Below are positions 22,713 to 39,039 of a stretch of DNA of 39,189 bases, piece after piece. The stretch is from an uncultured Frankiales bacterium. GTDB lineage: Bacteria; Actinomycetota; Actinomycetes; Mycobacteriales; SCTD01. The DNA lies in NCBI GenBank assembly GCA_946479905.1, contig CAMLIA010000016.1, forward strand, positions 1 through 39,189, read 5' to 3'. Position 1 is the stretch's first letter. Each line of letters starts with the position of its first letter. The notes under the pieces are model-generated. The model ran no database searches and was not told the DNA's origin. It was given only the letters and a program-made list of their open reading frames with translations. The position numbers and the translations under genes were made by a program.

Positions 22713-23975
22713 TCAGCCCATCACGGTGCCGGTGGAGTCGGCGTTGCGCTCCCGCAGCCTGCTGAAGGCGCCCAGGCCGATCTGGAGCCCGGTGTGCTCG
22801 CCGACGAGAGTGGACTCGCCCTTGATGACCTTGCTCATGATCTTGCCGACGACCGGCGCGTTCTTGAACTGGTTGCCACTGGTGCCGATGGCGACGTAGT
22901 AGCCGGGGCGCTCGGTCGCGTCGTAGACGGGAGTCCAGTCCTCGGTCACGTCGTAGACGCCGGCGACGCCGAGGGCTCGGCTGGGGACGCCGAGGTCGGG
23001 CAGCCGCCGCGCCGCGCGGGTGACCTGCGCCTCGAACACCGGCTGCGTCGGGTTGGGGTTGGCAGCGTCCGGGTCCTCGATCCACTCGAGCGGGTCGCAC
23101 TCGGGCTCGGTGCCCCCGACGAGCAGACCGTCGCCCGGCGTACCCCGCATGTAGATGCCGAGGTCGAGGTCAGCGATGCACGGACCGATGGCGTCGCCGT
23201 TGTAGCCGGCGGGCGCGGGGACGTGGTGGACCTCCTGCCGCATCGGGCGGGTGGTGACCGACCAGCCCTCGCCGACACCGGCGAGCTCGTTGAGGGCGTG
23301 CGACCAGGGTCCGGCGGCGTTGACGACCACCGGGGCGGACACGGTCGTGCCGTCGCTGAGCGCGACGCCGCCGCCGTCCAGCACCTCGGTGACGGTCTTG
23401 CCGAACAGGAACTGCGCACCGCGGCGGCGGGCGGCGTTGGCCAGGTTGACGGCGGCGAGCGCCGGGTCGTCGACGAAGCCGGCGTCGGGCGTCCAGAGGG
23501 CACCGAGGCGGCGCGGGCTGTCCTCCCAGAAGGCCGGGTCGTCGACGCGCTTGTTGGGCCAGTACTGACCGTTGTCGATGCCGGGGATCCGGCGCGCGAG
23601 CTCGTCGGCGTCCCAGACCTCGTAGGGGATGCCGGCCTGGTCGAACATGACGAGGACGCGCTCCATCGGCGCGATGTCGACGTCGAGGAAGGCCTTGCCG
23701 ACGCGGTGGAACCTCGCCATGCCGGCGTCGTCGACGCCCTCGAGGTGGTCGGCCCACTTCTCCCAGCAGTGCTTGGCCTCCCACGCGGTGGCGATGCCGT
23801 CCCACGTGGAGTAGTTGAAGCGGATCACGGCGCTGGACGCGCTGGTCGATCCCTGGCCGGGGGCCGACGCCTTGTCGACGACGACGACGGACAGGCCGTC
23901 CCGCGCCAGCTCCAGGGCGATCGACGAGCCGATGACCCCCGCACCGACGATGACAGCGTCTGCAGTCATGTTCAT
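22713..23975 (-). CDS. DAO-type FAD-dependent oxidoreductase
   Basis: This is a 420-residue flavoprotein of the D-amino-acid/sarcosine/dimethylglycine oxidase superfamily. The N-terminal FAD fold is ADAVIVGAGVIGSSIALELA, then VVVVDKASAPGQGSTSASSAV. The central VVNAAGPWSHALNELAG is the usual second FAD-contact segment, and the C-terminal GYYVAIGTSGNQFKNAPVVGK is typical of the sarcosine oxidase beta type. The oxidised substrate is probably an amine or (N-methyl) amino acid; it cannot be named. The start ATG 23975 (MNMTADAVIVG) is supported by a conserved regulatory element ending 41 nt upstream, at the same distance as in two other genes here. It lies downstream of pucR on the same strand but has its own promoter. 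Confidence 0.88.
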   Translation of the reverse strand: MNMTADAVIVGAGVIGSSIALELARDGLSVVVVDKASAPGQGSTSASSAVIRFNYSTWDGIATAWEAKHCWEKWADHLEGVDDAGMARFHRVGKAFLDVDIAPMERVLVMFDQAGIPYEVWDADELARRIPGIDNGQYWPNKRVDDPAFWEDSPRRLGALWTPDAGFVDDPALAAVNLANAARRRGAQFLFGKTVTEVLDGGGVALSDGTTVSAPVVVNAAGPWSHALNELAGVGEGWSVTTRPMRQEVHHVPAPAGYNGDAIGPCIADLDLGIYMRGTPGDGLLVGGTEPECDPLEWIEDPDAANPNPTQPVFEAQVTRAARRLPDLGVPSRALGVAGVYDVTEDWTPVYDATERPGYYVAIGTSGNQFKNAPVVGKIMSKVIKGESTLVGEHTGLQIGLGAFSRLRERNADSTGTVMG

Positions 23976-24012
23976 GGCACTCAGTCTTCCTGCGCGAGCG
24001 GGCCGCTCCCAC

Positions 24013-24049
24013 CTACCGGTGTCGAGGGTTCGTCAGGGCTCGTTCGTCA
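24013..24049 (-). promoter_or_regulatory. Copy 1 of the TGACGAAC-N24-GTAG element (oxidoreductase promoter)
   Basis: Read on the minus strand: TGACGAACG (24049-24041), 24 nt, GTAG (24016-24013). A second TGACGAACC (24035-24027) is inserted 14 nt after the first, making a tandem pair. TCGACACCGGTAG is shared almost exactly with copy 3. The GTAG begins 41 nt before the oxidoreductase ATG. The first half overlaps the stop codon of the upstream pucR gene. Two other copies with identical spacing exist at 27878 and 34301. Confidence 0.7.
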
Positions 24050-25252
24050 CTTGCCGAGAAGCCCCTGCAGACGGGCGAGCTTGAGCCCGAGGTGCAGGTC
24101 GAGCCGGGCCGCGCCGCTGTTGAGCGACAGGCCGGTGATCTCCTCGATCCGTCCCAGCCGGTAGTAGAGGCTCGTGCGGTGCACCTGCAGGCGCGCGACC
24201 GTGGCGCGCGAGTCGCACCCCTCGTCGAGCCACGTCTCGAGCGTCTCGACGAGCGGGCCCTCGCTGTCGGCGTCCATGAGGGCCCGCAGGCCGAGCGGGA
24301 TGGCGTCGGTCGGCAGGTCGTCGAGCGGCAGCTTGATGAGCAGCCGGTAGACGCCGAGCTCGTCCCAGGCGGTGATCGGCCCGAAGCCGGGGACCTTGCC
24401 GGCGACGTCGAGGGCCTCGCGCGCCCGTCGGTCGCTCGTCGCGGCGTCCTCGAGACCGCGGTGCACCTGGCCGATGCCGACCCGTACCTCGACGGTGTCG
24501 TCCAGGGTCTTCAGCAGGTCGTCACGAAGGGCCTCGGCGATGCCGTGGAGGTCCTGGGCGGTCGGCGCGCGACGGCCGGCCACGAGCAGCACGCCCCGGC
24601 CGCCGGCGCGCGACAGGGCCAGGCTGGTCAACGGGTTCGCCCGCCGACCCGCTCGCCGCAGCGCCGCGTCGAGCGCCGTGCGGACGTCGTCGCCGTTGTC
24701 GGTCTCGACCTGCACCACCAGCACGCAGAGGTGCGCCGCGGACGGCAGCATCTCCTCCTCCACGAGCAGCGCAGCGGCCGCTGACCGCACCGTCAGGTCG
24801 TCGGAGAGGACGTCCCGCAGCAGGTCGCGCTCGCGGGTGTCGCGCAGGTCGTCGAGCAGTCGCTCGCGGTAGAGCACCTGACCCGCAGCGGCAGCCGTCT
24901 CGACGGCGTCGGCGAGCTGCTCGTCGGTGAGCGACTCGTCGTCGTCGATGATCCAGAGGAACCCGAACAGCAGTCCCTGGCAGCGCACCGGCACGCAGAC
25001 GCGGGTCAGGAACTCCAGCTCTGCGACCCCCCGCACCCGGACCGGCTCCTCGGCGCTGGAGATGCCCTGGGCGAAGGCGTGCTCGACGACCTCGTCGGGT
25101 GCCCGCATCCGCATGACGCTCGCCACCCGGTGCCGGTCGACGTGCTCGTCGTGCGCGGTGTGCGTGATGAGGTTCATCTGCGGGTCGTCGATGGCGATCG
25201 CGCGGTTGATGCGCGCGGCCAGGCCGGTCGCGATCCGTTGCAGGTCATCCAT
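24047..25252 (-). CDS. PucR/CdaR-family transcriptional regulator (PucR1)
   Basis: This is a 401-residue activator-type regulator. The N-half resembles a GAF-like sensory domain (FLTRVCVPVRCQGLLFGFLWIIDD), the middle a degenerate GGDEF-like region (VRVGIGQVHRGLEDAATSDRRAREALD), and the C-terminus an HTH_30 domain at about 351-375 (TVARLQVHRTSLYYRLGRIEEITGL). PucR-family proteins control purine, amino-acid and amine catabolism in response to metabolites. It is the fourth gene of the S9 peptidase-cupin-lipoprotein-pucR unit, and its ATG 25252 overlaps the lipoprotein stop by 8 bp. Because the first gene of that unit carries the shared TGACGAAC element, autoregulation is a reasonable inference. 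Confidence 0.9.
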   Translation of the reverse strand: MDDLQRIATGLAARINRAIAIDDPQMNLITHTAHDEHVDRHRVASVMRMRAPDEVVEHAFAQGISSAEEPVRVRGVAELEFLTRVCVPVRCQGLLFGFLWIIDDDESLTDEQLADAVETAAAAGQVLYRERLLDDLRDTRERDLLRDVLSDDLTVRSAAAALLVEEEMLPSAAHLCVLVVQVETDNGDDVRTALDAALRRAGRRANPLTSLALSRAGGRGVLLVAGRRAPTAQDLHGIAEALRDDLLKTLDDTVEVRVGIGQVHRGLEDAATSDRRAREALDVAGKVPGFGPITAWDELGVYRLLIKLPLDDLPTDAIPLGLRALMDADSEGPLVETLETWLDEGCDSRATVARLQVHRTSLYYRLGRIEEITGLSLNSGAARLDLHLGLKLARLQGLLGK

Positions 25253-25538
25253 GTGCGCCTCCGGACGTCGAGCCGAAGGTACGCAGATCGCAGGCGCCGA
25301 GGGAACGGATCGCCCATCCCAGCAGGAACAGCAGCAGCGGCACGGCCCACACCGTCCCGTAGCGGCCGCCCTCGATCGTGAACGACGCGATGCGGAACGG
25401 CACGGTGACGGTGGCGCCGTCCTTCGGCCCGGTCAGCGACAGCCGGGTGTCCCGCACCAGGTCGATGCCGCTGAAGGCGCACCCGGAGACGGCCAGCAGC
25501 GCGGCTGCGGCCGTCCCGAGGCGCGCCGACGACGTCAC
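25245..25538 (-). CDS. Small lipoprotein with C-terminal membrane helix
   Basis: This is a 97-residue protein from GTG 25538, whose first codon overlaps the cupin stop as GTGA. The N-terminus MTSSARLGTAAAALLAVSGC has a lipobox (AVSG-C). A short beta-type region (LSLTGPKDGATVTVPFRIASF) follows, then a hydrophobic helix (VWAVPLLLFLLGWAI) and a Gly/Ser tail. It would be tethered outside the membrane at its N-terminus and span the membrane once. No family recognised. It is embedded by overlaps at both ends in the peptidase-cupin-pucR operon, so it probably shares their role or serves in sensing. Confidence 0.7.
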   Translation of the reverse strand: MTSSARLGTAAAALLAVSGCAFSGIDLVRDTRLSLTGPKDGATVTVPFRIASFTIEGGRYGTVWAVPLLLFLLGWAIRSLGACDLRTFGSTSGGAHG

Positions 25539-25891
25539 GGGCGGTAGACGGTGAAGACCTTGCGCAGCGTCTCGTGGACGGTCCACGTGCCGGTCCAGCC
25601 GAGCGGGAAGACCGCGGAGCTACCGGCGGTCAGCTCGACCTCGTCGGCGCCGTCCTGCTGCACGGTCATGCGACCGGACAGCACGTGGATGAACTCCCCG
25701 CGCTCGAGGAACTCCCAGCGGGAGGCGCCCGGCTCGCACTCCCAGGTGCCGCAGAGGATCTTGCCGTCCTCGCTGGTGAAGGGCACCAGCGAGCGGGTCA
25801 TGATGTCGCCCGTCAGCGGCTCGGCCGACGGCGGCCCGAGGGGCTTGTCCTCGAGGTCGGTGCGCTCGGCGGCGCGGAAGGCGATCGTCAT
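25535..25891 (-). CDS. Cupin-domain protein (Cupin_3 / DUF861 type)
   Basis: This is a 118-residue single-domain cupin. The core motifs are WECEPGASRWEFLERGEFIHVLSGRMTV (first histidine-type motif in degenerate form) and TAGSSAVFPLGWTGTWTVHETLRKVFTVY. The EFLERGEFIHVLSG wording is typical of the DUF861 group, which often sits beside DAO-type oxidoreductases and amine catabolic genes. The catalytic role is unknown; small-molecule binding is equally possible. Start ATG 25891 overlaps the S9 peptidase stop as ATGA, and its stop overlaps the lipoprotein start as GTGA. Confidence 0.85.
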   Translation of the reverse strand: MTIAFRAAERTDLEDKPLGPPSAEPLTGDIMTRSLVPFTSEDGKILCGTWECEPGASRWEFLERGEFIHVLSGRMTVQQDGADEVELTAGSSAVFPLGWTGTWTVHETLRKVFTVYRP

Positions 25892-27840
25892 GCGGTGGCT
25901 CCCATGTGCTTGTCGAAGAAGGTGAGGACGCGTGTGCAGTAGTCGGTGACGGCAGGGAAGGCGCGGGCGCCGTGCCCCTCCTGCGGGTAGATGACCAGCG
26001 TCGACTCGACGCCGTGCTCCAGCAGCGCCTGGTGGAACTCCTGGGCCTGGGTGGGTGGGGTGCAGCGGTCGAGCGCCCCTGCGACGTTGAGGCAGGGGGT
26101 ACGCACCTTGCTCGCGTGCGCGACCGGGCTGCGGGAGTGGAACTTGTCGCCCGGCACCTCCGGGTCGCCGTCGAGGAAGAGCGCGTCGAAGTAGGGGATG
26201 TTGCTCGTGAAGTGCTGGCTGTACCAGTTGGTCACCGGCGAGGTCGGCACCGCGGCCGCCCAGCGCTGGTCCTGGGTGACGAGCCAGGCCGACATGAAGC
26301 CGCCGTAGGAGCCGCCCATCAGGCCCACCCGGGCAGGGTCGACGATGCCGCGCTCGACGAGGGCGTCGACGCCGGACGTGAAGTCCCAGGTGTCGTCGCC
26401 GCCCATCTCGCCGAACACCTTGCGGGCGAACTCCTGCCCACGGCCGGCGCTGCCGCGCGGGTTGGGGTTGAGCACGGCGTACCCCTGGGCCACGAGGATC
26501 GGGGTCCAGGCGTAGAACAGCGACCACTGGTTGCGGAACGCCCAGACCGGGCCGCCGTGGATGTTCACCACGAGCGGGAACGGGCCCTCGCCCTCGGGGG
26601 TGCAGAGGATGCCCTCGATGCGCAGCCCGTCCGGCGCCGACCAGGCCACCGCCTCCGCCGTCCCGGCGACCGAGAGCAGGTAGTCGGTGCCGGCGTGCCG
26701 GTTGTCGAGCCGCACCTCGCGCTCGTCGCCGAGGACGACCACCTGCTGCGGCTGGGAGTAGCCCTCCTCGACGAGGACGACCCGGCCGTCCGCGGTCCAG
26801 GCAGCCTCCGGGTAGCGGGCCCCGCAGCTGGTGTCGGTGCTCGACCACAGCTCGGTCGTCTTGCCGGTGCGGACGTCGTGCACGGCGGCGACGGTCTCCA
26901 GACCGCGGATGCCGAGCAGCCCGACCCGGTCGTCGTCGATCCACTGGGTCGCGGTCACGTCGACGCCGGCGGTGTCGACGGTCTCGAGGGCGCCCGCGGT
27001 GCCCACCAGCAGGTCACCGGCGACGACCCACCGGTCGCTGCAGACGGCCTCGACGACGGCGAGCCGGGTCCCCGACGGCGACCCGGACGGCCAGCCCAGC
27101 TGCACCTCGGGGCGGTAGAGCTCAGCCACCGTCCCGTCGAGGTCGATGCGGTTGAGGGTGGCGGTGTACCAGGCGCCCTCGCCGGGCTGCGGGCTCGTGA
27201 CCGCGAGCACCGCGTCGGCGCCGAGCCAGCCGGCCTCCCAGGTGTTGAGCCCCTCGGGGGACAGCCGCGTCGTGGTCCCCGCGGCGAGGTCGTGCACCCA
27301 CAGGGAGCGCCAGGACTCCTCGTTCGCGCCGGTGTCGACGTGGGGGTGCCACTCGGGCAGGTCCTCGGCAGGCTTGTAGGTGGTGCCGCTCCCCTGGCCA
27401 CCGGCGAGGTCGGCCCCGAGGCCGGCGACGCCGAGCAGCACGCGTGCGCCGTCCGGCGACCAGGCGCAGTACTCCACGGTGCCGGGCACCGAGGTGGTGG
27501 TCTGCTCGTCGCCCTCGACCACCACGAGCTGGAAGCGGCCGGGCTCCTGCGCGTCGGACAGCACGGCGATCCGCCGGCCGTCCGGGGAGATCCGCGGCTG
27601 GCGGGCCGTCCCGTCCAGCACGCGCCGCAGCTCGCCGTCCTCGACGACGAAGCAGCCCTGCCGAGGCAGTCCCGCCAGCTCGTCGTAGACCAGGCCCGTC
27701 ACGGCGATCCGGGTGCCGTCCCCCGACACCGAGGGTTCGAGCAGCCGGTGCGGACGCCCGAAGGCGGGCTCGTGCAGGCGACGGAAGTGGTCCTCGACGC
27801 GCTCCCAGGTGGCGCTTCCCCGGAGGTCCTGTGCAGTCAT
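25888..27840 (-). CDS. S9 family peptidase, acylaminoacyl-peptidase/S9C-like
   Basis: This is a 650-residue cytoplasmic serine peptidase (no signal peptide). An N-terminal seven-bladed propeller (about 20-390, blades such as RQPRISPDGRRIAVLSD and VEYCAWSPDGARVLLG) gates a C-terminal alpha/beta-hydrolase domain. The latter begins LVVNIHGGPVWAFRNQW, with nucleophile GGSYGG Ser511, Asp591 in ALDRCTPP and His623 in EGHGA. Such enzymes cleave short peptides or N-acylated amino acids. Start ATG 27840 lies 6 nt after TACCGT, suggesting leaderless mRNA. It is the first gene of a four-gene unit (peptidase, cupin, lipoprotein, PucR regulator), all stop/start overlapped. Confidence 0.92.
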   Translation of the reverse strand: MTAQDLRGSATWERVEDHFRRLHEPAFGRPHRLLEPSVSGDGTRIAVTGLVYDELAGLPRQGCFVVEDGELRRVLDGTARQPRISPDGRRIAVLSDAQEPGRFQLVVVEGDEQTTTSVPGTVEYCAWSPDGARVLLGVAGLGADLAGGQGSGTTYKPAEDLPEWHPHVDTGANEESWRSLWVHDLAAGTTTRLSPEGLNTWEAGWLGADAVLAVTSPQPGEGAWYTATLNRIDLDGTVAELYRPEVQLGWPSGSPSGTRLAVVEAVCSDRWVVAGDLLVGTAGALETVDTAGVDVTATQWIDDDRVGLLGIRGLETVAAVHDVRTGKTTELWSSTDTSCGARYPEAAWTADGRVVLVEEGYSQPQQVVVLGDEREVRLDNRHAGTDYLLSVAGTAEAVAWSAPDGLRIEGILCTPEGEGPFPLVVNIHGGPVWAFRNQWSLFYAWTPILVAQGYAVLNPNPRGSAGRGQEFARKVFGEMGGDDTWDFTSGVDALVERGIVDPARVGLMGGSYGGFMSAWLVTQDQRWAAAVPTSPVTNWYSQHFTSNIPYFDALFLDGDPEVPGDKFHSRSPVAHASKVRTPCLNVAGALDRCTPPTQAQEFHQALLEHGVESTLVIYPQEGHGARAFPAVTDYCTRVLTFFDKHMGATA

Positions 27841-27846
27841 GGGCGG

Positions 27847-27852
27847 ACGGTA
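27847..27852 (-). promoter_or_regulatory. -10 element of the S9C peptidase operon
   Basis: On the minus strand TACCGT ends exactly 6 nt before the ATG, implying initiation of transcription at or next to the start codon. The same hexamer, 7 nt before the ATG, precedes the amidohydrolase gene at 33038. A hairpin-forming GTGGC-GTGT-GCCAC (27854-27867) lies in the -10/-35 spacer. Confidence 0.5.
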
Positions 27853-27877
27853 GGTGGCGTGTGCCACACCCGTCTGC

Positions 27878-27914
27878 CTACTGCGGGAGGAATGCGCGCC
27901 CACCGGGTTCGTCA
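27878..27914 (-). promoter_or_regulatory. Copy 2 of the TGACGAAC-N24-GTAG element (S9C peptidase operon)
   Basis: On the minus strand TGACGAACC (27914-27906) is followed after exactly 24 nt by GTAG (27881-27878), 41 nt before the peptidase ATG. Relative to the TACCGT -10, the GTAG half sits just upstream of where a -35 would be, the position of a class II activator site. Confidence 0.7.
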
Positions 27915-27973
27915 GACGTCGAGCCGCTCGACAGGTGACGCAACGGGAGCGCTCCGGATGCTCTCCCGGACGG

Positions 27974-28002
27974 ATGACCTCGGCCACCCCGCTCCCTAGG
28001 TT
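27974..28002 (+). promoter_or_regulatory. Leaderless promoter of the DUF885 gene
   Basis: ATGACC (27974-27979, 4 of 6 bases of TTGACA) and TAGGTT (27997-28002) are separated by 17 bp. The -10 ends 6 nt before the ATG at 28009, so transcription should begin at the start codon. The GGGAGG touching the ATG is too close to serve as a normal ribosome binding site. Confidence 0.55.
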
Positions 28003-28008
28003 GGGAGG

Positions 28009-29718
28009 ATGAGCACCTCTGGCCCCAATCCTGTCGGGCTCGCGCTTGCCGTCGTCGAAGACGCCTGGGAGGAGGTCCGGCGCTCGCCCTACATCGCCCG
28101 GGACCTCGGGATCCCCGTCGACCGGCTGCCCGAGGTCAGCGAGGAGGAGGCCTTCGCCTCGGGCGCCCGGGCCCAGCGCGTCCTGGACAGGATCGCCACG
28201 CTCGACACCACGCAGCTGCCGCACGAGCTGGCGCTGACCGTCGAGGTCGCACGCAACCAGATGGAGACCCGGGCGCGCGCGGGCGAGTGGTACTGGCTGG
28301 TCTTCGACCCGCTCGGGGTCGGCTTCTACGCCATGTACGCCCCCACCGCCTACGGCGGCGGCTTCCTGCTCGGCCAGCTCGCCAGCCTGTTCGCCGGGCA
28401 CGCGTTCGACCAGCCAGGTGACCTCGACCGCTACCTGGGGCTCGTGGCGGACTTCGGCCGGCTGGTGCGCCAGCTCGACGCCCGGACCCGGGGCCAGGCC
28501 GAGCGCGGCATCCACCTGCCCCGCACGCAGCTGGCGCAGGCGGTCTCCCTCATGACCGGCCTGCGCGCCACCGCCGCGGCCACCCTGGTCCCGTCCGACG
28601 CCCGGCTCGCCGACGCGGCGGCACGCGCCCTCGTCGAGGCGCGCGTTGCGGACGCGGTGCTCCCGGCGTACGACGAGACGATCGCCTGGCTGTCCCACCC
28701 GGAGCGGGAGGCTGCCGCGGGCGACGCCGTCGGGCTGGCGAGCCTGCCGGGCGGCGCGGAGGTCTACGCGGACCTCGTGCGGCTGCACACCACGCTCGAC
28801 CTCACGCCGGAGGAGGTCCACCAGCGAGGGCTGGCCCGGGTCGCCGAGATCCGCGCCGAGATGCAGGCCATCCTCGACGAGGTGGGCGCCACGCACCCGG
28901 CGCAGGAGCACATGGCCGTCCTCGCGCAGGACCCCGCCTGGCGAGCGGACGGCGCCGAGGCGATCACCGCCGTCTTCCAGCGGTACGTCGACCGGCTCAA
29001 GCCGCACGTGGACACCGCCTTCCGGTTCACGCCGAAGGCCGACTACGGGGTGGCGCCGCTGCCCGAGGCGCTCGCGTCCTCGATGACGTTCGGCTACTAC
29101 GACGTGCCCTCACCCTCGGAGCCCAGGGGCCGGTACCTGTTCAACGCCGGCAACCTCTCGCAGCAGTCGCTGGCGAACGTGGCCCCGCTGACCTACCACG
29201 AGCTCGTGCCCGGGCACCACTTCCACATGGCGTCGCAGCGCGAGAACGAGGGCCTGCACCCGCTGCGCCGCAACAGCTTCGTGAACGCCTTCAACGAGGG
29301 CTGGGCGGAGTACGCGGCGCACCTCGCGGGCGAGCTCGGGATGTACGAGCTGCCCGAGGAGCGCTTCGGGAAGCTGGTGATGGAGGCGTTCCTCACCACC
29401 CGCCTCGTCGTCGACACCGGCATGAACGCGCTCGGCTGGTCGCTCGAGCAGGCCCGCGACTACATGCGGGAGAACGCGTTCGTCTCGGAGTCCGAGATCC
29501 TCACGGAATCGGTGCGGTACTCATGCGACATCCCGGCGCAGGCGCTCGGCTACAAGATCGGTGACCTGTTCCTGCAGGACCTCCGGGCCGAGATGCAGAA
29601 GGCGCTCGGGGACCGCTTCGACCTGCGCGACTTCCACGACGCCGTGCTGCGGCCGGGCGCCTTGCCGCTGCGGCTCGTCGAGGCCAACGTCGCCCGCGCC
29701 ACGGCGGCGCTCAGCTGA
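28009..29718 (+). CDS. DUF885 family protein, putative metallopeptidase
   Basis: This is a 569-residue cytoplasmic protein of the DUF885 family, predicted zinc-dependent carboxypeptidase/dipeptidase-like enzymes. The active-site segment is YHELVPGHHFHM with HELVPGHH at 397-404, an expanded HExxH form, followed by FNEGWAEYAAHLAGELGMYE with EGWAEY at 430-435 (third ligand). The N-half is helical. The C-terminus SCDIPAQALGYKIGDLFLQDLR is typical of the family. It is the only plus-strand gene inside an island of minus-strand peptidase genes, divergent from the S9C peptidase and convergent with the prolyl oligopeptidase. The substrate is unknown. Confidence 0.9.
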   Translation: MSTSGPNPVGLALAVVEDAWEEVRRSPYIARDLGIPVDRLPEVSEEEAFASGARAQRVLDRIATLDTTQLPHELALTVEVARNQMETRARAGEWYWLVFDPLGVGFYAMYAPTAYGGGFLLGQLASLFAGHAFDQPGDLDRYLGLVADFGRLVRQLDARTRGQAERGIHLPRTQLAQAVSLMTGLRATAAATLVPSDARLADAAARALVEARVADAVLPAYDETIAWLSHPEREAAAGDAVGLASLPGGAEVYADLVRLHTTLDLTPEEVHQRGLARVAEIRAEMQAILDEVGATHPAQEHMAVLAQDPAWRADGAEAITAVFQRYVDRLKPHVDTAFRFTPKADYGVAPLPEALASSMTFGYYDVPSPSEPRGRYLFNAGNLSQQSLANVAPLTYHELVPGHHFHMASQRENEGLHPLRRNSFVNAFNEGWAEYAAHLAGELGMYELPEERFGKLVMEAFLTTRLVVDTGMNALGWSLEQARDYMRENAFVSESEILTESVRYSCDIPAQALGYKIGDLFLQDLRAEMQKALGDRFDLRDFHDAVLRPGALPLRLVEANVARATAALS

Positions 29719-29767
29719 TCTTTGCCCGGTCGGCACGCCGCGTCTCGGCGGCGGCCGGGCAAAGATC
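29717..29767. terminator. Strong bidirectional hairpin terminator
   Basis: GATCTTTGCCCGG (29717-29729) and CCGGGCAAAGATC (29755-29767) are perfect 13-bp inverted repeats. The 25-nt loop contains a second small hairpin (CGCCG 29736-29740, CGGCG 29746-29750). The left arm overlaps the stop codon of the DUF885 gene and the element ends 27 bp from the stop of the convergent gene. The AT-rich base flanks are symmetric, so it can act in both directions. Confidence 0.75.
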
Positions 29768-29793
29768 GCGTGGGGCACCCCTGCTGAGCGGGG

Positions 29794-31812
29794 TCAGACC
29801 TCGAGACCGAGGTGCTGGCAGACGAAGGCGAGCCACTCGCTGTTCTGCTCCAGCGCGACGCTCTTCTCGGTCGCCCAGCCGTGCCCGACGTTCTCCCAGA
29901 CCCGCAGCAGCACGGGCGCGTCGCCCTGCTGAGCGGCCTGCAGCCGGGCGGCGAGCTTGCGCGCGTGCCACGGCGAGCAGCGGGGGTCGGTGTCGCCGGC
30001 GTCGATGAAGATCGGCGGGTAAGCCCGGTCGGTGACGAGGTGGTACGGCGAGAACGTGAGCAGCCGGCGTACGTCGTCGGGGTCGTCGACGTCGGCGAAC
30101 TCGACGGAGATGGCGAACCGCCCGTAGTTCTCGCGGCAGGCGCCGATCAGGTCGAAGATCGGAACCCGAGGGACGACGGCGTCCCACAGCTCGGGTCGCT
30201 GGGTGACGGCGACGCCGGACATCAGCCCGCCGTTCGAGCCGCCCGTGACGGCGAGCGTCGTCGCGGTGCCGGAGGAGCGCAGGTCCTCGGCAACGGCGTA
30301 CAGGTCCTCGTAGCCGCGCTGCTTGTTGCCCATCCGGCCGCCCTCCCACCAGTCGCGGCCGAGCTCGCCACCGCCGCGGAGGTGGGCGTGCACGAAGATC
30401 CCGCCGGCGGCGACGAACGCCGCCATCGGGCCGGGGAACTGCGGCACCCACGGCGCGTTGAAGCCGCCGTAGGCGTAGAGCAGCGCGGGGCCGCCGGTCA
30501 CGTCGCCGGGGCGGAGCACGTGGTACGGCACGCGGGTGCCGTCGGCGCTGGTCGCCCAGCGGTCCTCGACCACGGCACCGGCCAGCGTCACCGCCGGCGG
30601 GTCGAGCTCGACGACGGGGTCCGTGCCGGGCACGTGCTGGTAGACGCCCCAGGAGGCGGTCAGTGACGAGAAGGCGAACAAGAAGCTGTCGCGGTCCCCC
30701 CGCGGTACGAGGTTCTGGTACTGGAACGGCTGCTCGGCGACGGTGCCGTTACCCGGCAGGCGCACCTCCTGCACCAGGTCGCCGTCGGCGGTGACGACGC
30801 GCACCCGGCTGTAGGTGTCGACGAACGCGTGCAGGTACAGCACATCGCCGACGGGGGTGACGGTCCGCAGCACCGCCTCGCTCTCGGGCACCAGGGTGGT
30901 CCAGCGGCTCGGGTCGGTTGCGTCGAGGTCGATCGCGACGAGCCGCCCCCTGGGCGCGTCCAGGTCGGTGATGGCGACGTAGCGGTTCCCGATCAGGTGG
31001 CCCTGCACGACGGCGTCCACGTCCGGGAGGAACGGGCGCCAGTGCAGCGCCGCAGGGTCGGTGAGGTCGGCCACCGCCACCGGGCGAGGCGAGGTCAGGC
31101 CCTGCACCGCGACGACGCGCTTGCCGTCCCAGGACGGCTGCAGCATGCGGTAGTCGCCGTCGTCGAGCCACGGCACGGCCACCTTCGTGGTGGCGGCGGA
31201 CGCGACGTCGAAGAGGACGACCCGCTGGGCGAGGTCGATCGCGGCACCCTCGATGACGGTCGCGAAGAACCCGCTGCTGTCGGGCAGCCAGGCGACGCCG
31301 CCGCTCCAGCCGTCCATCAGCCGGACGTCGGGAGCCGGCTGCTCGGCACCGGACTCGACGTCGAGGATCCGGATGGTGTTCTGCTCGCTGCCGTCGTCGC
31401 ACAGCCCGACGGCCAGCAGCCGGCCGTCAGGGGACGGCGAGAACCAGGAGAGGTACGGCGAGGGCTGCTGCTCCGCAGGGTCGTGGAGCACGCGCCCCTC
31501 GCCGTACGGCGTCTCGGAGACGAGCACGCTCGCCTGGGTGGCCCCCGGCGCGATCGTCGAGCGGAACCACAGCCCGGCCGCCTTGCGCGGCACGGCGCCG
31601 AAGCGGGCCGCGGAGTGCTCCTCGACCAGGTCGCGGAGCCGGGCGAAGCCCGACCACTCCCGCACGTGGGCAGAGGCGAGCTCGTTCTGCTGCTTCTGCC
31701 AGAGCCGCACCTCCTCCGACGTGCCGTCCTCGAGCCAGCGGTAGGGGTCCGGGGCGCGGACGCCGGCGAGCTCGTCCGGGACGTCCTGGACGCGGGTCTC
31801 GGGGTAGGTCAA
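29794..31812 (-). CDS. Prolyl oligopeptidase (S9A family)
   Basis: This is a 672-residue serine peptidase that cuts short peptides after proline. It begins TYPETRVQDVPDELAGVRAPDPYRWLED, the family's N-terminal signature. A seven-bladed propeller and the catalytic domain follow: ALLYAYGGFNAPWVPQF, HLRGGGELGRDWWEGGR, nucleophile GGSNGG Ser526, Asp in DAGDTDPRCSP, and His in ENVGHGW. No signal peptide, so probably cytoplasmic. The start is an unusual TTG at 31812, overlapping the amidohydrolase stop as TTGA; no ATG or GTG precedes the conserved N-terminus in frame, so TTG is well supported. It is co-transcribed with the amidohydrolase. Confidence 0.93.
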   Translation of the reverse strand: MTYPETRVQDVPDELAGVRAPDPYRWLEDGTSEEVRLWQKQQNELASAHVREWSGFARLRDLVEEHSAARFGAVPRKAAGLWFRSTIAPGATQASVLVSETPYGEGRVLHDPAEQQPSPYLSWFSPSPDGRLLAVGLCDDGSEQNTIRILDVESGAEQPAPDVRLMDGWSGGVAWLPDSSGFFATVIEGAAIDLAQRVVLFDVASAATTKVAVPWLDDGDYRMLQPSWDGKRVVAVQGLTSPRPVAVADLTDPAALHWRPFLPDVDAVVQGHLIGNRYVAITDLDAPRGRLVAIDLDATDPSRWTTLVPESEAVLRTVTPVGDVLYLHAFVDTYSRVRVVTADGDLVQEVRLPGNGTVAEQPFQYQNLVPRGDRDSFLFAFSSLTASWGVYQHVPGTDPVVELDPPAVTLAGAVVEDRWATSADGTRVPYHVLRPGDVTGGPALLYAYGGFNAPWVPQFPGPMAAFVAAGGIFVHAHLRGGGELGRDWWEGGRMGNKQRGYEDLYAVAEDLRSSGTATTLAVTGGSNGGLMSGVAVTQRPELWDAVVPRVPIFDLIGACRENYGRFAISVEFADVDDPDDVRRLLTFSPYHLVTDRAYPPIFIDAGDTDPRCSPWHARKLAARLQAAQQGDAPVLLRVWENVGHGWATEKSVALEQNSEWLAFVCQHLGLEV

Positions 31813-33038
31813 CGGATGTCCTTCACGACGGCGCCGGCCTTCATGACCAGCGCGGCCTGGTCGCGGTCGGTGAACGTCTTCGGCGACTCGAGCGGGTCGG
31901 TGCGCCAGGCCACGAGGTCGGCGACCTTGCCGACCTCGAGCGTCCCCAGCTCGTCGGACAGCCGCAGGATCTCGCTGTTGGTCTTGGTGGCCGCGACGAG
32001 GGCGTCCATCGGGGTCTCGAGCTCGGCGCGCAGCAGCAGCTCCTCGGAGCGGCCGGTCTGGTCGGGTCCGATGAGGTCGCTGCCGAGGCCCACCTTCACG
32101 CCCGCGGCGCGCGAGATGAGCACCGCGTCGAGCTGGCTCTGCCGGACCAGCCGGGCCCGGTCGGCGATCGCCTGCGGCAGGCCGACCGCGGCGGCGCTGC
32201 GCAGCAGCTGCTCGACCACCGCGAGGGTCGGGACGTGCGCCACGCCGTTCGCCGCCAGCAGGGCGGCGGTCTCCTCGTCGATCTCGGAGCCGTGCTCGAC
32301 GCACTTCACGCCGGCCTTCACGGCGTGCTGCACCCCGCGGTTGTTGTGCGAGTGCACCGTGACGTAGGTGCCGCGCGCGTTCGCCTCCTGCACGGCGACG
32401 GCGATCTCGTCCACGGTGAGCTGGGTGTCGCTGAGCTTGTCGTGGGTGGACACCACGCCGCCGCTGACGCAGAGCTTGAGGAAGTCGGCGCCGCGCCGGA
32501 AGGTCTCGCGGACGTTCTTGCGCATCTCGTCCACGCCGTCGGAGAGGAACGCGAGGCTGCACAGCCCCGGGATGTGGTGGGCCTCCCACAGGTCCGTGGG
32601 CTCCCACTCGGCGGCGAGGTGCCCGTGGCCCCCGGTCTGGCACTGGATCGGGCCGCACTGCAGGACCCGCGGGCCGCGGACCTTGCCCTTCGCGATGGCC
32701 GTGGGCAGGCCGCCGTCGATGCCGCCGGTGTCCCGGACGGTGGTGTAGCCGGCGTCGAGCGTCTGCGACGCGTTGTTGAACATGTCCGCGGCGATCTCCG
32801 CGACGCTCAGGCCGTGACCGAGCAGGTCGTTGATGCTGCTCGCGATGCCGAGGTGGACGTGCGCGTCGATGAGCCCCGGGGTCAGCGTGAACCCGGTCAG
32901 GTCCAGCGCGGTCGCGCCGGCGGGCGCGGTGCCCAGCTCCGCGATCCGGCCGTCGCGGACCAGCAGGTCCAACCCGTCGAAGGGGTCACGTCCGGTGCCG
33001 TCCGCGATCCGTGCGCCTGTCAGCCATGTCTCCACCAT
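31809..33038 (-). CDS. Metal-dependent amidohydrolase (imidazolonepropionase/Xaa-Pro dipeptidase-like)
   Basis: This is a 409-residue TIM-barrel amidohydrolase. Metal ligands are DAHVH (His60, His62), a carboxylated-lysine candidate in ADFLKLCVSGGVVS, His in YVTVHSHNNRGVQHAV, His in VKCVEHGSEIDEET, and Asp in VKVGLGSDLIGP. The C-terminal GTLEVGKVADLVAW is the usual end of the small beta domain. This branch includes enzymes hydrolysing Xaa-Pro and Xaa-Arg dipeptides, which would suit the prolyl oligopeptidase that overlaps its stop codon (TTGA). Start ATG 33038; TACCGT lies 7 nt upstream. The substrate is inferred only from context. Confidence 0.88.
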   Translation of the reverse strand: MVETWLTGARIADGTGRDPFDGLDLLVRDGRIAELGTAPAGATALDLTGFTLTPGLIDAHVHLGIASSINDLLGHGLSVAEIAADMFNNASQTLDAGYTTVRDTGGIDGGLPTAIAKGKVRGPRVLQCGPIQCQTGGHGHLAAEWEPTDLWEAHHIPGLCSLAFLSDGVDEMRKNVRETFRRGADFLKLCVSGGVVSTHDKLSDTQLTVDEIAVAVQEANARGTYVTVHSHNNRGVQHAVKAGVKCVEHGSEIDEETAALLAANGVAHVPTLAVVEQLLRSAAAVGLPQAIADRARLVRQSQLDAVLISRAAGVKVGLGSDLIGPDQTGRSEELLLRAELETPMDALVAATKTNSEILRLSDELGTLEVGKVADLVAWRTDPLESPKTFTDRDQAALVMKAGAVVKDIR

Positions 33039-33045
33039 GGCCGAG

Positions 33046-33051
33046 ACGGTA
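33046..33051 (-). promoter_or_regulatory. -10 element of the amidohydrolase-prolyl oligopeptidase unit
   Basis: TACCGT on the minus strand ends 7 nt before the ATG. It is identical to the hexamer before the S9C peptidase gene. No TGACGAAC element is present upstream, so this unit would not belong to the PucR-linked set. Confidence 0.4.
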
Positions 33052-33110
33052 CGAGGATCGGAGCCGGAGCGCGTTCGACCGCTGTAGAAGCCGCCGGCCT
33101 CCGGGTCCGA

Positions 33111-33138
33111 CTGCGGACGGTTCCTGCGTCCGACGCAG
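33111..33138 (-). terminator. Hairpin downstream of the second pucR gene
   Basis: CTGCGGACG (33111-33119) pairs with CGTC (33127-33130) and CGCAG (33134-33138), nine base pairs with a 3-nt bulge and a 7-nt loop. It lies about 45 bp after the stop of the second pucR gene and upstream of the amidohydrolase promoter. Confidence 0.4.
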
Positions 33139-33181
33139 CTTCCTATCCTCCGGCCATGGCGCCCGAGGAGCTCGTCCCTGG

Positions 33182-34264
33182 TCAGACCTGACGGGTGCCG
33201 AGGCTCTCGCGCAGCAGCAGCTGCACGACAGGTGCGTGGGCGAGGTTGTCCGCCGTCAGTCCGGTCAGCTCACGGGCCTTCGCCAGCCGGTACCGGAAGG
33301 TGTTGGGGTGCACCCCGACGCGCGCAGCGGCACCGGCCGTGTCGAAGCCCGCGGTCATCCAGGCGAGCAGCGTCGTCTGCAGCTGACCGCCTTGCGCCTC
33401 GTCCGCCCGGCGGAGCGCCCCTAGCGGGTCGGCGCCGATGAGCCCGGACAGCTGCACGATGGCCTCCGTGGCCTCGCGCGCCAGCATCTGCAGGGCGACC
33501 TGGGGGTCCGTCGGCTCGCCGTAGCCGAGGCCGAGCGCCTCGGCCGCGTCCAGGGCCGCGTGCGCCAGCCGGAAGGCCTCGCGCCAGTCGTCCGCGCCGT
33601 CACGCACGACCGCTGATCCCACCGCCCGGGCCTCGCCACCGGTCGCCAGGCGGGCGTGGACCGAGCGCCCGTCCGCGTCGGCAGGGAGGACGACGAGGAG
33701 GAGTCCCTCGACCTGGTGCAGGCGAACCGACAGGCCCGTGGTCACCGCGCGGCAGGCCGTCGCCGCCCGACGCAGGTTGTCGGCCCGGACCAGCAGCAGG
33801 CGCGCACGAGGGGCGTGTCCCGTCAGCGAAGGACCCCGGGAGTGCAGCAGGTCGTCGACCGTGGCGTCGAACAGCGGCGACAGTGCGCGCCCGACAGCCT
33901 CGTCGAGCTCGGCCCGCAGGGCACTGGAGCACCCACCGCTGGCACCCACGATCCAGGTGCGGACACCGTCGCCGTGCTCGACCACGTCGACGCGAAGGCC
34001 GTCGAGGCTGCCGTGCGGCGGCGTGCTGCCGCGCTTCCAGCGCACGGCCCGCCGCATCGGCGCCGTGACCCGACCGACGAGCGTGGTGACCAGCGGCGCG
34101 GGGCAGTCCCCGTCGGCAGCGCGGTGCAGCAGGACGTCGCCGTCCTGCTCGATCAGGACCCAGCAGCCGAGCCGCTGCCCGATCGCGGAGATGACCACGT
34201 CGAGGTCGCCGCGTCGGCCGGGCGCCGGCTGTGCCAGGGCATCGACGGCATCGAGGGCAGACAT
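33182..34264 (-). CDS. PucR-type transcriptional regulator (PucR2)
   Basis: This is a 360-residue protein. The C-terminal HTH_30 domain starts near 309 (AGAAARVGVHPNTFRYRLAKARELTGL), typical of PucR/CdaR regulators. The N-terminal domain (about 20-150) lacks the GAF-like wording of the other PucR here, and the middle contains a degenerate GGDEF-like region. Start ATG 34264 (MSALDAVDALAQ). Its promoter carries the shared TGACGAAC-N24-GTAG element, so it is either autoregulated or controlled by the other PucR protein. The ligand is unknown. Confidence 0.85.
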   Translation of the reverse strand: MSALDAVDALAQPAPGRRGDLDVVISAIGQRLGCWVLIEQDGDVLLHRAADGDCPAPLVTTLVGRVTAPMRRAVRWKRGSTPPHGSLDGLRVDVVEHGDGVRTWIVGASGGCSSALRAELDEAVGRALSPLFDATVDDLLHSRGPSLTGHAPRARLLLVRADNLRRAATACRAVTTGLSVRLHQVEGLLLVVLPADADGRSVHARLATGGEARAVGSAVVRDGADDWREAFRLAHAALDAAEALGLGYGEPTDPQVALQMLAREATEAIVQLSGLIGADPLGALRRADEAQGGQLQTTLLAWMTAGFDTAGAAARVGVHPNTFRYRLAKARELTGLTADNLAHAPVVQLLLRESLGTRQV

Positions 34265-34300
34265 GACCGCAGTGTCGCCCGGTGGCGCCCCAGGATCTCG

Positions 34301-34337
34301 CTACTGGTGTCGAAACCTGGAGCCCCCCGGTTCGTCA
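34301..34337 (-). promoter_or_regulatory. Copy 3 of the TGACGAAC-N24-GTAG element (second pucR promoter)
   Basis: On the minus strand TGACGAACC (34337-34329) is followed after exactly 24 nt by GTAG (34304-34301), 40 nt before the regulator's ATG. TCGACACCAGTAG matches copy 1 at all but one base. The first half contains the stop codon of the upstream SCP2-like gene, as copy 1 contains a stop codon too. Confidence 0.7.
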
Positions 34338-34730
34338 GACCGCAGGGAACTCCACGGGGACCGTCGCGACCGCGCGGGCGATCTCCATCACGGGGCCGAT
34401 CTCCGCGAGCACCGCGGCGTCGCCCTCGATGTCGAGCTGCGGGTCCAGCGGCTCGCCCGTGCGCGCGGACTGGGAGGCCTGGATCATGCGCCGCCAGTCA
34501 CCGACGAAGCAGATGTCGGGTGCCGGGTGCTCCTGCAGGGAGAACCGCGCGGTGTCGCTGAAGCTCAGCGTCCAGTGGACGTCCGCACCCGTCGGACCCG
34601 AAGTCAGCCGGTAGGCCATCGTGCGCGGCCGGCTCAGTCCGGCGCACGCCTCGCGCACCTCCGGCGCGTCCTCCAGCAACGCGTTCATCGAGGCGACGTG
34701 CTGCTCGGACATGAACTCCATGACGGTCAC
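34335..34730 (-). CDS. Small SCP2-like (sterol-carrier fold) protein
   Basis: This is a 131-residue protein if the GTG at 34730 (overlapping the peptidase stop as GTGA) is used; the ATG at 34722 (MEFMSEQHVASMNALLED) is an alternative. The sequence VHWTLSFSDTARFSLQEHPAPDICFVGDWRRMIQASQSARTG with LDIEGDAAVLAEIGPVMEIA resembles SCP2-type lipid/acyl-CoA-binding domains. The assignment rests on pattern resemblance, so other small alpha/beta folds are possible. It is the last gene of the GbsR-lipoprotein-DPP unit. Confidence 0.6.
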   Translation of the reverse strand: MTVMEFMSEQHVASMNALLEDAPEVREACAGLSRPRTMAYRLTSGPTGADVHWTLSFSDTARFSLQEHPAPDICFVGDWRRMIQASQSARTGEPLDPQLDIEGDAAVLAEIGPVMEIARAVATVPVEFPAV

Positions 34731-38457: not shown

Positions 38458-38927
38458 CGGGCTCCCGCCTCGAACTCGGCGACCAGATCGGGGAAGCGCC
38501 GGGCGAGGAAGCGGTAGAAGTCACGCATCCGCGTCAGCTCCTCGGCAGCGCGCGAACCGGCAGGCACCTCGGCGAGGGCGCGGTCGGCGATGGCGGCGAG
38601 GGACCGGCTGGGTTCCGCCGCGGAGTCCATGGCGCGCACGAACGCGTCGGAGGTCAGCCGGTAGTGGTGCTGGCGCGTCCCCGGCAGCCCGAAGCGCTCG
38701 ATCATGCGCATCGCCTCCAGCATCGAGATCGCGCTCGAGAGGTGCCCCTTGCTCGTCCCGATCCGCTCGCACAGCTCCGCCGTCGACAGGAACGGCGGCT
38801 CGGCGAGCATGAGCTCCCCGATGACGCGCCCCACGAGGCGCGGCCAGCCGTGCGCCTCGAAGAGCTCCGAGAGGCTGAGCGGGAACGACTCCGTGGGAGG
38901 CGCGGCGGGACGACGAGCGTTCGGCAT
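38454..38927 (-). CDS. GbsR/MarR-type winged-helix regulator
   Basis: This is a 157-residue protein from ATG 38927 (MPNARRPAAPPTESFPL). The winged helix is about 45-95: FLSTAELCERIGTSKGHLSSAISMLEAMRMIERFG, then a basic wing GTRQHHYRLTSDAF. A C-terminal dimerisation helix contains RMRDFYRFLARRFPDLV. The reading frame is open to 39044, but that upstream part would cover a set of inverted repeats that look like operators, so the downstream ATG is preferred. It is the first gene of a regulator-lipoprotein-peptidase-SCP2 unit and is divergent from the partial gene at 39081. The control target is inferred to be that intergenic region. Confidence 0.8.
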   Translation of the reverse strand: MPNARRPAAPPTESFPLSLSELFEAHGWPRLVGRVIGELMLAEPPFLSTAELCERIGTSKGHLSSAISMLEAMRMIERFGLPGTRQHHYRLTSDAFVRAMDSAAEPSRSLAAIADRALAEVPAGSRAAEELTRMRDFYRFLARRFPDLVAEFEAGAR

Positions 38928-38971
38928 GTTTCCGAACACTGCCGGAGACTCGTCGGCCCCACAAGGGACGT

Positions 38972-39039
38972 CTGTCGAAACAGCACCGGGCGTCTGTTCG
39001 TCCGCTGTCGAAGCGGCGTGCCGGGATTCTCGACAGCGG
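38972..39039. promoter_or_regulatory. CTGTCGA repeat cluster, candidate GbsR operators
   Basis: CCGCTGTCGA (39002-39011) and TCGACAGCGG (39030-39039) are perfect 10-bp inverted repeats 18 bp apart. A further CTGTCGAAACAG (38972-38983) is a dyad with the same half-site, and CTGTTCG (38994-39000) is a weaker half. A related dyad TGTTTCCGAACA (38927-38938) overlaps the GbsR-like start codon. The cluster fills the divergent intergenic region between the regulator and the gene at 39081. Confidence 0.55.

What the first reader, a model, noticed from the sequence alone, without database searches (positions are those of the whole stretch)
24013..34337. Three promoters share TGACGAAC(C/G)-N24-GTAG at fixed distance from the start codon: a candidate PucR regulon
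Seen on the minus strand: TGACGAACG at 24049-24041 with GTAG at 24016-24013; TGACGAACC at 27914-27906 with GTAG at 27881-27878; TGACGAACC at 34337-34329 with GTAG at 34304-34301. The gap is exactly 24 nt each time, and GTAG begins 41, 41 and 40 nt before the start codons of the FAD oxidoreductase, the S9C peptidase-cupin-lipoprotein-pucR1 unit and pucR2. All three genes are on one strand, and two of the downstream units encode PucR regulators. Inference: a class II activator site bound by PucR1 and/or PucR2, with autoregulation, tying peptide cleavage to amine/amino-acid oxidation.
Basis: partly seen in the sequence, partly recalled or inferred. Interest (0 to 1): 0.82.

Follow-up and report, generated by a model that had tools for sequence, protein, structure and literature searches.

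The report
PucR operators controlling peptide-breakdown genes
Several neighbouring genes for cutting up peptides in this bacterium appear to share the same DNA switch, a 16-base mirror-image site placed at nearly constant distances before each gene, which a PucR-type regulator most likely reads; the regulator family is known, but this switch and its gene set look new.

Summary
The three TGACGAAC(C/G)-N24-GTAG matches exist as described. The string itself is not the signal: it occurs 51 times in 8 related genomes, never at a homologous promoter. It cuts across two copies of a 16-bp imperfect palindrome, TTCGACA-NN-TGTCGAA: TGACGAAC is the right half of an upstream copy, GTAG of a downstream copy 32 bp away. 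A matrix from relatives' sites alone puts its six best window hits (0/200 shuffles reach six) before the FAD oxidoreductase, S9C peptidase, divergent DUF885, amidohydrolase and MarR genes; pucR2 has only a weak copy. Sites end 66-69 or 34-36 nt before the start codon, with -10-like nAnnnT 6-8 nt from it, so leaderless promoters probably explain the fixed distance. Two sites not used for the matrix, in a relative, obey the rule; a third site there does not. The palindrome precedes 19 of 29 relatives' pucR genes, all with a recognition helix like PucR1's (L112 set aside). PucR1 is the best candidate reader; PucR2 is not supported. Known regulator family, apparently undescribed operator and regulon; no binding data.

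The parts
24043..24058 (-).
   Evidence: 13.1 bits; 14.1 bits, gap 67; homologous site L091 CCCGGCAGGTGACGAA, 9.1 bits, gap 66
24011..24026 (-).
   Evidence: 8.5 bits, gap 35; L091 CTTGACAGTCGTCGGT 12.1 bits, gap 34
24028..24035 (-). Extra TGACGAAC half-site between the two slots
   Evidence: its 16-mer scores 6.3 bits
23983..23988 (-). -10-like AAGACT, 7 nt before the ATG of the FAD oxidoreductase (inferred leaderless promoter)
22713..23975 (-). FAD-dependent oxidoreductase (DAO family)
   Evidence: Pfam PF01266 E 6.7e-57; none of the 25 NCBIfam rows shown reaches its cut-off
24047..25252 (-). pucR1: PucR-type regulator (GGDEF-like domain + HTH_30), recognition helix HRTSLYYRL; proposed reader of the operators
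   Evidence: (PF13556, PF17853)
25245..25586 (-).
25535..25900 (-). Cupin (EutQ-like) gene, start approximate
   Evidence: PF05899; NF049940 below cut-off
25888..27840 (-). S9C-type prolyl-oligopeptidase-family peptidase, 650 aa
   Evidence: PF00326; the three closest relatives align from residue 1 or 2
27908..27923 (-).
   Evidence: rank 1, 15.4 bits; 14.6 bits; homologues L090 CTCGACACCTGTTGAA (gap 67), L092 TTCGACACTCGTAGAA (gap 66)
27878..27881 (-).
   Evidence: homologues have GTCG (L090) or GTCC (L092)
27847..27852 (-). -10-like TACCGT, 6 nt before the S9C ATG
   Evidence: TAGGGT in L090
27927..27942 (+). Second operator in the divergent S9C/DUF885 region: CTCGACAGGTGACGCA, ends 66 nt before the DUF885 ATG
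   Evidence: 14.1 bits; 14.6 bits, gap 66
27997..28002 (+). -10-like TAGGTT, 6 nt before the DUF885 ATG
28009..29718 (+). DUF885 protein, divergent from S9C; proposed regulon member
   Evidence: PF05960 E 4e-125
29794..31812 (-). Prolyl oligopeptidase (S9A) gene, start approximate
   Evidence: PF02897, PF00326
31809..33038 (-). Amidohydrolase resembling Xaa-Pro dipeptidases of the amidohydrolase superfamily
   Evidence: NF051886 248.6 bits, below its cut-off of 500; chains named amidohydrolase/prolidase in the PDB
33074..33089 (-). Operator, downstream slot, amidohydrolase-PREP promoter: TTCTACAGCGGTCGAA, ends 35 nt before the ATG
   Evidence: 14.6 bits; rank 1, 17.7 bits, gap 35; L094 amidohydrolase TGCGGCAATGGTCGCA, gap 66
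33046..33051 (-). -10-like TACCGT, 7 nt before the amidohydrolase ATG
33182..34264 (-). pucR2: HTH_30 regulator with a different recognition helix (HPNTFRYRL); a word-limited search scored 7,994 candidates and returned only itself
34299..34314 (-).
   Evidence: 7.7 bits, rank 25; 10.7 bits, rank 10
34329..34337 (-). TGACGAACC half-site in the pucR2 promoter; left half absent (16-mer 34331-34346 scores about 0 or below)
34271..34276 (-). -10-like GACACT, 6 nt before the pucR2 ATG
34335..34718 (-). Small ORF upstream of pucR2, start approximate; a 52% identical relative lies beside DPPIV in L102
34727..37267 (-). Dipeptidyl-peptidase IV-type S9 peptidase (longest ORF; real start probably near 36967, inferred)
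   Evidence: PF00930, PF00326
36964..38457 (-). Substrate-binding-protein-like gene (Peripla_BP_6)
   Evidence: PF13458 E 1.8e-8
38454..38927 (-). MarR-family regulator gene, overlaps the next gene by 4 nt; start inferred
   Evidence: PF12802, 28.8 bits against a cut-off of 27
38997..39012 (-). Operator, upstream slot, MarR promoter: TTCGACAGCGGACGAA, ends 69 nt before the inferred ATG
   Evidence: 14.5 bits; 16.3 bits, gap 69
38964..38979 (-). Operator, downstream slot, MarR promoter: TTCGACAGACGTCCCT, ends 36 nt before the inferred ATG, 33 bp from the upstream one
   Evidence: 14.8 bits; 12.8 bits, gap 36
38936..38941 (-). -10-like CAGTGT, 8 nt before the inferred MarR ATG

Best explanation
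The shared sequence is a set of operators for a PucR-type regulator, most likely PucR1 (24047-25252). One operator is a 16-bp imperfect palindrome, TTCGACA-NN-TGTCGAA, with half-sites 10 bp apart, the spacing expected for the two recognition helices of a PucR-type dimer. The promoters are probably leaderless, with a -10 box (nAnnnT) 6-8 nt before the start codon, so that the operators would occupy about -83 to -68 and -51 to -36, next to the -35 region. In response to an unknown signal (perhaps proline or a proline-containing peptide), PucR1 would activate the FAD oxidoreductase, the S9C peptidase unit with its own gene, DUF885, the amidohydrolase-prolyl oligopeptidase unit and the MarR-binding-protein-DPPIV unit, and perhaps pucR2. 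Shown here: sites, their conservation and geometry.
For: Palindromic motif search on 18 promoters of relatives, without window sequence, returned TTCGACAATTGTCGAA (log-likelihood ratio 56.6 against 31.6 +/- 2.5, maximum 38.3, in 150 shuffles). The resulting matrix ranks sites of five promoters 1-6 in the window, with a drop to 10.2 bits; a second matrix from 8 hand-picked relatives' sites gives the same six, with a smaller drop (12.8 to 11.7 bits); at 12.5 bits 0 of 200 shuffled windows reach six. Distance to start: FAD 67/35, S9C 67, DUF885 66, MarR 69/36, amidohydrolase 35, pucR2 34; relatives: FAD 67 (L089), 66/34 (L091), 68 (L093), 71 (L094, GTG start), S9C 67 and 66, amidohydrolase 66; M6 peptidases 69, 69, 70. 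Sites not used in the matrix: two in L095 end 67 and 66 nt before an S9C-like and another FAD-oxidoreductase-like start, each with nAnnnT 6 nt before it. -10-like nAnnnT at 6-7 nt in 12 of 16 starts against 5.2% of ATG/GTG triplets. Reader: with a 7-site matrix, 19 of 29 relatives' pucR upstream regions (20 of 30 counting L112, which was itself found through its site) score 14 or more, 6 of 13 non-redundant; shuffle means 0.17 (of 30) and 0.07, maximum 1; all have an HR[TA][ST][LV]YYR[LI] helix like PucR1's HRTSLYYRL. Module genes recur together in different orders. Precedent: GabR binds two inverted repeats just upstream of the -35 box (PMC7652997, passages); MabR's recognition helices are spaced for one turn (PMC11617747, passages).
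Against: No binding or expression data. 10 of 150 sets of random segments from the same loci matched or exceeded the motif-search score (those loci hold homologous coding stretches, but the control is not clean). The matrices are weak per site: with the first, shuffled windows average 1.2 hits at 13 bits and their best hit averages 13.8, up to 18.4, against 15.4 for the window's best; at 12 bits some shuffles exceed the window's six. With the second, shuffles average 1.4 hits at 12.5 bits, 5 of 200 reach the window's 11 at 10 bits and 2 of 200 its 2 at 16 bits. Many homologous promoters are not independent. pucR2's promoter scores poorly. Of 47 FAD homologues' upstream regions 5 score 12.5 or more, four of them sites used in the matrix and the fifth (L029) probably chance; 29 of 30 class-level loci lack TGACGAAC. 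L102's FAD and pucR promoters, L090's FAD and ten of the pucR genes show no good site. In L095 the divergent FAD start is 86 nt from the site and has a Shine-Dalgarno-like sequence. Two of 16 starts have no nAnnnT at 4-10 nt, one of them with a Shine-Dalgarno-like sequence. Activation rather than repression is inferred from position and family habit.
Confidence: 0.77

Rival explanations
1. The palindromes are real but are read by another regulator: PucR2, or the MarR protein at 38454-38927.
For: PucR2 sits in the middle of the cluster and its promoter has a weak site; the two strong sites at 38964-39012 lie directly before the MarR gene, the usual place for a MarR autoregulatory site (established knowledge).
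Against: PucR2 has another recognition helix and no relative in a word-limited search, yet the palindrome is conserved in relatives. The tblastn maps of L089-L105 show no MarR match, and the palindrome stands before pucR genes in 19 of 29 loci.
Confidence: 0.13
2. TGACGAAC and GTAG are promoter elements themselves (for example the -35 and -10 boxes of an alternative sigma factor).
For: Fixed spacing between two short conserved blocks at fixed distance from the start.
Against: 24-25 nt is longer than the 16-19 nt usual between sigma-factor boxes (established knowledge); GTAG is not kept in homologous promoters (GTCG, GTCC) while the palindrome is; single strong palindromes occur without the second block (L089, 33074-33089); a better -10 lies 6-8 nt before the start.
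Confidence: 0.04
3. Coincidence: two of the TGACGAAC copies include stop codons, GTAG is common, and the pattern occurs at many other places.
For: 51 exact matches in 8 related genomes, none at the homologous promoters; motif-search control 10 of 150; weak matrices.
Against: L091 keeps TGACGAACC at the same distance although its pucR stop codon lies elsewhere; matrices blind to the window recover the same sites; sites not used in the matrix obey the same distance.
Confidence: 0.06

Closest known systems
Corynebacterium glutamicum GabR (PucR-type activator of gabTDP), PMC7652997
   Same: Actinobacterial PucR-family activator of amino-acid catabolism; two inverted repeats immediately upstream of the -35 box, both needed for strong binding, bound region -87 to -23 (passages read)
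   Different: GabR lacks the GGDEF-like domain that PucR1 has; its 21-bp operator sequence was not compared here; serves GABA use rather than peptides
Bacillus subtilis AdeR and PutR (PucR-type activators of alanine and proline catabolism)
   Same: GGDEF-like PucR architecture (AdeR is PucR1's best NCBIfam match, 103.8 bits, below its cut-off of 700); inverted-repeat operators of 24 and 17 bp (as reported in PMC7652997)
   Different: From Bacillus; operator sequences not compared here, their own papers not read
Mycobacterium tuberculosis MabR (Rv2242), PMC11617747
   Same: PucR-family HTH with a GGDEF-like domain; dimer helices spaced about one turn, matching half-sites 10 bp apart (passages read)
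   Different: Regulates mycolic-acid genes; N-terminal globin-like domain; PucR1's N-terminus not modelled here

Membership tests
PucR-type regulator (PucR1 as reader) | C-terminal PucR HTH (PF13556) | tested here: met
   70.7 bits against a cut-off of 27
PucR-type regulator (PucR1 as reader) | GGDEF-like domain, present in about half of the family (PMC7652997) | tested here: met
   PF17853, 43.6 bits against 24.5
AdeR (NCBIfam equivalog) | Score above the curated cut-off | tested here: not met
   NF058503 103.8 bits against 700
Operator of a PucR-type dimer | Inverted repeat with half-sites about one turn apart | tested here: met
   Palindromic 16-mer from relatives (the search was constrained to palindromes); half-site spacing 10 bp; expectation from PMC11617747
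Operator of a PucR-type dimer | Two sites just upstream of the -35 region | tested here: inconclusive
   Slots at about 67 and 35 nt before the start fit if transcripts are leaderless; start sites not mapped; several promoters have only one good copy
Operator of a PucR-type dimer | Binding by the regulator | not testable with these tools
   Needs purified protein
Conserved regulon | Site kept in homologous promoters | tested here: met
   Met in L089-L095, close to a PucR gene or S9C; not in most FAD homologues: 5 of 47 score 12.5 or more
Leaderless promoter | -10 box 6-7 nt before the start codon and no Shine-Dalgarno sequence | tested here: met
   12 of 16 starts have nAnnnT at 6-7 nt; no SD-like sequence at -14 to -4 in 15 of 16 (DUF885 has GGGAGG directly at its ATG, outside that range)
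Leaderless promoter | Transcript 5' end at the start codon | not testable with these tools
   Needs transcript mapping

The most novel reading that the evidence does not exclude
A subclass of actinobacterial PucR regulators, marked by the recognition helix HR(T/A)S(L/V)YYR, commands a dispersed peptide-use regulon (secreted M6 proteases, S9 prolyl peptidases, Xaa-Pro-dipeptidase-like amidohydrolases, DUF885 and FAD amino-acid oxidoreductases) through one promoter design: a TTCGACANNTGTCGAA operator a fixed 66-70 nt from the start codon of a leaderless mRNA, so that targets can be predicted from sequence alone across genera.
Probability: 0.5. Interest if true: 0.6.

Novelty: new member of a known kind. 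Interest (0 to 1): 0.5.

Why it matters
Few PucR-type regulators have been studied and fewer have known sites (PMC7652997, passages). An operator defined by comparison, with a fixed geometry, would let targets be predicted in other actinomycetes, suggest a role for uncharacterised genes such as DUF885 and the FAD oxidoreductase, and point to proline-containing peptides as a likely signal or substrate.

Tried and rejected
Exact pattern in relatives: 51 matches against 15 for the reversed pattern, none at homologous promoters, so rejected as a signature. Palindrome with up to 2 mismatches: 77 forward matches against 44 for the reversed control in 8 genomes. I looked at all 9 sites of G637 and all 11 of G001, and 1 of G424's 13: in G637 6 overlap high-GC3 open frames (one of them before the frame's first start codon), 2 are the FAD and pucR/M6 intergenic sites and 1 is another intergenic place; in G001 6 overlap such frames and 5 do not, one of these being the S9C-promoter site at a contig end; the G424 one overlaps a frame. 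Prediction from the palindrome alone is therefore unsafe. RNA element: no Rfam family reaches its gathering score in the window. FAD homologues: of 30 class-level loci only L007 has TGACGAAC upstream; of 47 upstream regions 5 reach 12.5 bits (L036 dropped because its match begins inside the gene). PucR2 relatives: none but itself, word-limited. L003 was left out of the pucR count because its contig ends about 116 bases upstream. Papers: the listings of searches (titles and starts of abstracts) showed no PucR regulon of peptidases; PMC3634020, which holds 'PucR' and 'prolyl oligopeptidase', was not opened. PMC7652997, PMC11617747 and PMC4681348 were read as passages only.

Full report
What was checked. 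GTAG begins 41, 41 and 40 nt before the ATGs at 23975, 27840 and 34264. Two of the three TGACGAAC copies include the stop codon of the preceding ORF, promoter 1 has a second copy 14 bp on, and promoters 1 and 3 share TCGACACC(G/A)GTAG.

Why the string itself is not the signal. No whole genome is held for the window. In eight related genomes (about 76 Mb) the exact pattern occurs 51 times, 4-10 per genome (15 for the pattern read backwards), and none of the listed places is a promoter homologous to those here. In homologous promoters GTAG is replaced: GTCG before the FAD oxidoreductase in L091, GTCG and GTCC before the S9C peptidase in L090 and L092.

What is conserved. Loci with the FAD oxidoreductase, S9C peptidase, prolyl oligopeptidase, amidohydrolase or DPPIV, mostly beside a PucR gene, were found in other genomes in several gene orders. 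A motif search restricted to palindromes, on 18 promoters of those loci and with no window sequence, returned TTCGACAATTGTCGAA at width 16. Its score, 56.6, exceeds all 150 shuffles (maximum 38.3), but 10 of 150 sets of random segments from the same loci matched or exceeded it, probably because those loci contain homologous coding stretches. The matrix was then run over the window. Its six best hits are 27908-27923, 38964-38979, 33074-33089, 38997-39012, 27927-27942 and 24043-24058 (13.1-15.4 bits; the seventh has 10.2). No single hit stands out from shuffled windows (their best averages 13.8, up to 18.4); the number of hits at 13 bits does, six against a mean of 1.2 and a maximum of 5 in 200, though at 12 bits some shuffles exceed six. 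A second matrix from eight sites that I picked by hand from relatives gives the same six, 12.8-17.7 bits, the seventh being 11.7; at 12.5 bits none of 200 shuffled windows reaches six, mean 1.4. All six end within 69 nt of a start codon: FAD oxidoreductase, S9C, DUF885 (divergent), amidohydrolase and MarR (two).

Geometry. Sites end 67 nt (FAD), 67 (S9C), 66 (DUF885) and 69 (MarR) before the start codon, or 35 (FAD, weak), 34 (pucR2, weak), 36 (MarR) and 35 (amidohydrolase). In relatives the gaps are 67, 66 with 34, 68 and 71 (FAD in L089, L091, L093, L094), 67 and 66 (S9C in L090, L092) and 66 (amidohydrolase in L094); L102's FAD and pucR have no good site. Six promoters of unlike genes (FAD, S9C, DUF885, MarR, amidohydrolase of L094, M6 peptidase of L125) fall within 66-69 nt; for random positions in 155 the chance is of order 4e-8, but I chose the six and used the FAD and amidohydrolase groups in building the matrix, so this is a guide only. 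Upstream and downstream slots are 32-33 bp apart, about three turns of DNA. A hexamer nAnnnT stands 6 or 7 nt before 12 of 16 starts, against 5.2% of ATG/GTG triplets; homologous promoters are not independent, but among the window's six promoters it is five, the sixth being at 8 nt. No Shine-Dalgarno-like sequence was seen at -14 to -4 in 15 of 16. The simplest reading is leaderless transcription, reported for 264 mRNAs of Streptomyces coelicolor (PMC4681348, passages); that alone would fix the operator-to-start distance.

Check on sites not used. In L095 the second matrix finds two sites not used to build it, TTCGACAGATGTAGGT and TTCAACGGACGTCGAA (16.7 and 17.7 bits). They end 67 nt before an S9C-like start (TAGCGT 6 nt before it) and 66 nt before the start of another FAD-oxidoreductase-like gene (CAGGAT 6 nt before it). 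Against the rule, the third L095 site, which is in the matrix, lies 86 nt from the divergent FAD start, which has a Shine-Dalgarno-like sequence, and 24 nt from its pucR start. Most FAD homologues lack the operator: 5 of 47 upstream regions reach 12.5 bits, four of them matrix sites; L038 has a weaker site (11.1 bits) 35 nt before its start.

The reader protein. PucR1 has the HTH_30 and GGDEF-like domains and a recognition helix HRTSLYYRL; PucR proteins beside homologous modules have HRASLYYRL or HRTSLYYRL in L089, L091, L093, L094 and L095 (HRATLYQRL in L102), whereas PucR2 has HPNTFRYRL. With a matrix of seven target-promoter sites, 19 of 29 pucR upstream regions fetched score 14 or more (20 of 30 with L112, which was found through its site; 6 of 13 after removing similar ones; shuffle means 0.17 and 0.07, maximum 1). 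All have HR[TA][ST][LV]YYR[LI] helices; of the 17 with exactly HRTSLYYRL, 14 score 14 or more and all exceed 12. Ten of 30 fall below 14, including the HRASLYYRL proteins of L056 and L057 next to FAD genes, so autoregulation is not general. Of the 20, 16 have the site 12-24 nt before the pucR start codon (start by alignment; positions), in many, by eye, downstream of a TTGAC...TAGGGA-type promoter, a repressor's place; four lie at 53-87 nt. In the three loci examined (L124, L125, L126) the site is also 70, 69 and 69 nt before a divergent secreted M6 metallopeptidase gene, the activator's place. PucR1 itself lies downstream of the S9C promoter with its strong site.

Function. The module joins S9 peptidases of prolyl-oligopeptidase, DPPIV and S9C types, an amidohydrolase closest to an Xaa-Pro dipeptidase model (248.6 bits, cut-off 500) and to chains named amidohydrolase or prolidase, DUF885, and a DAO-family FAD oxidoreductase without an assigned substrate. 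Use of proline-containing peptides is a reasonable guess; B. subtilis PutR, a PucR-type protein, serves proline use (PMC7652997).

Comparison. PucR-type GabR binds two inverted repeats just upstream of the -35 box between -87 and -23, and both are needed for strong binding (PMC7652997); MabR's recognition helices are spaced for one turn of DNA (PMC11617747). If transcripts are leaderless, the sites here lie at about -83 to -68 and -51 to -36. The arrangement is the same kind; operator sequence and target set appear undescribed in the searches made (listings), which cover open-licence papers only.

Verdict. Observation confirmed; interpretation right in kind, wrong in the exact motif, too narrow in the regulon, and probably wrong about PucR2. 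A good, testable regulon prediction in a known family.

Noticed in passing
L124, L125, L126: In the three loci examined a PucR gene is divergent from a secreted M6 metallopeptidase gene, with one palindrome between them that by position could serve both directions.
   Followed up: partly
33182-34264: pucR2 returned no protein but itself from a word-limited search of 5.8 billion, unusual for a PucR-family gene.
   Followed up: partly
L002 10001-10243 and L001 89-507: Microtetraspora loci hold only N-terminal pieces of a PucR1 relative (40% and 59-70% identity), suggesting decay or frameshift.
   Followed up: no
L091 and L090: Two genomes each hold an FAD oxidoreductase about 80% identical to the window's, but with unlike upstream sequence: pucR and the operator in one, S9C directly upstream in the other, which looks like module shuffling.
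   Followed up: no
5806-7518: Class II tRNA synthetase with an editing domain (prolyl-tRNA-synthetase-like, name inferred) in the same window as the prolyl peptidases; probably unrelated.
   Followed up: no
12649-16333: AtuA-family gene beside a biotin-carboxylase subunit, perhaps a terpene or branched acyl-CoA pathway.
   Followed up: no
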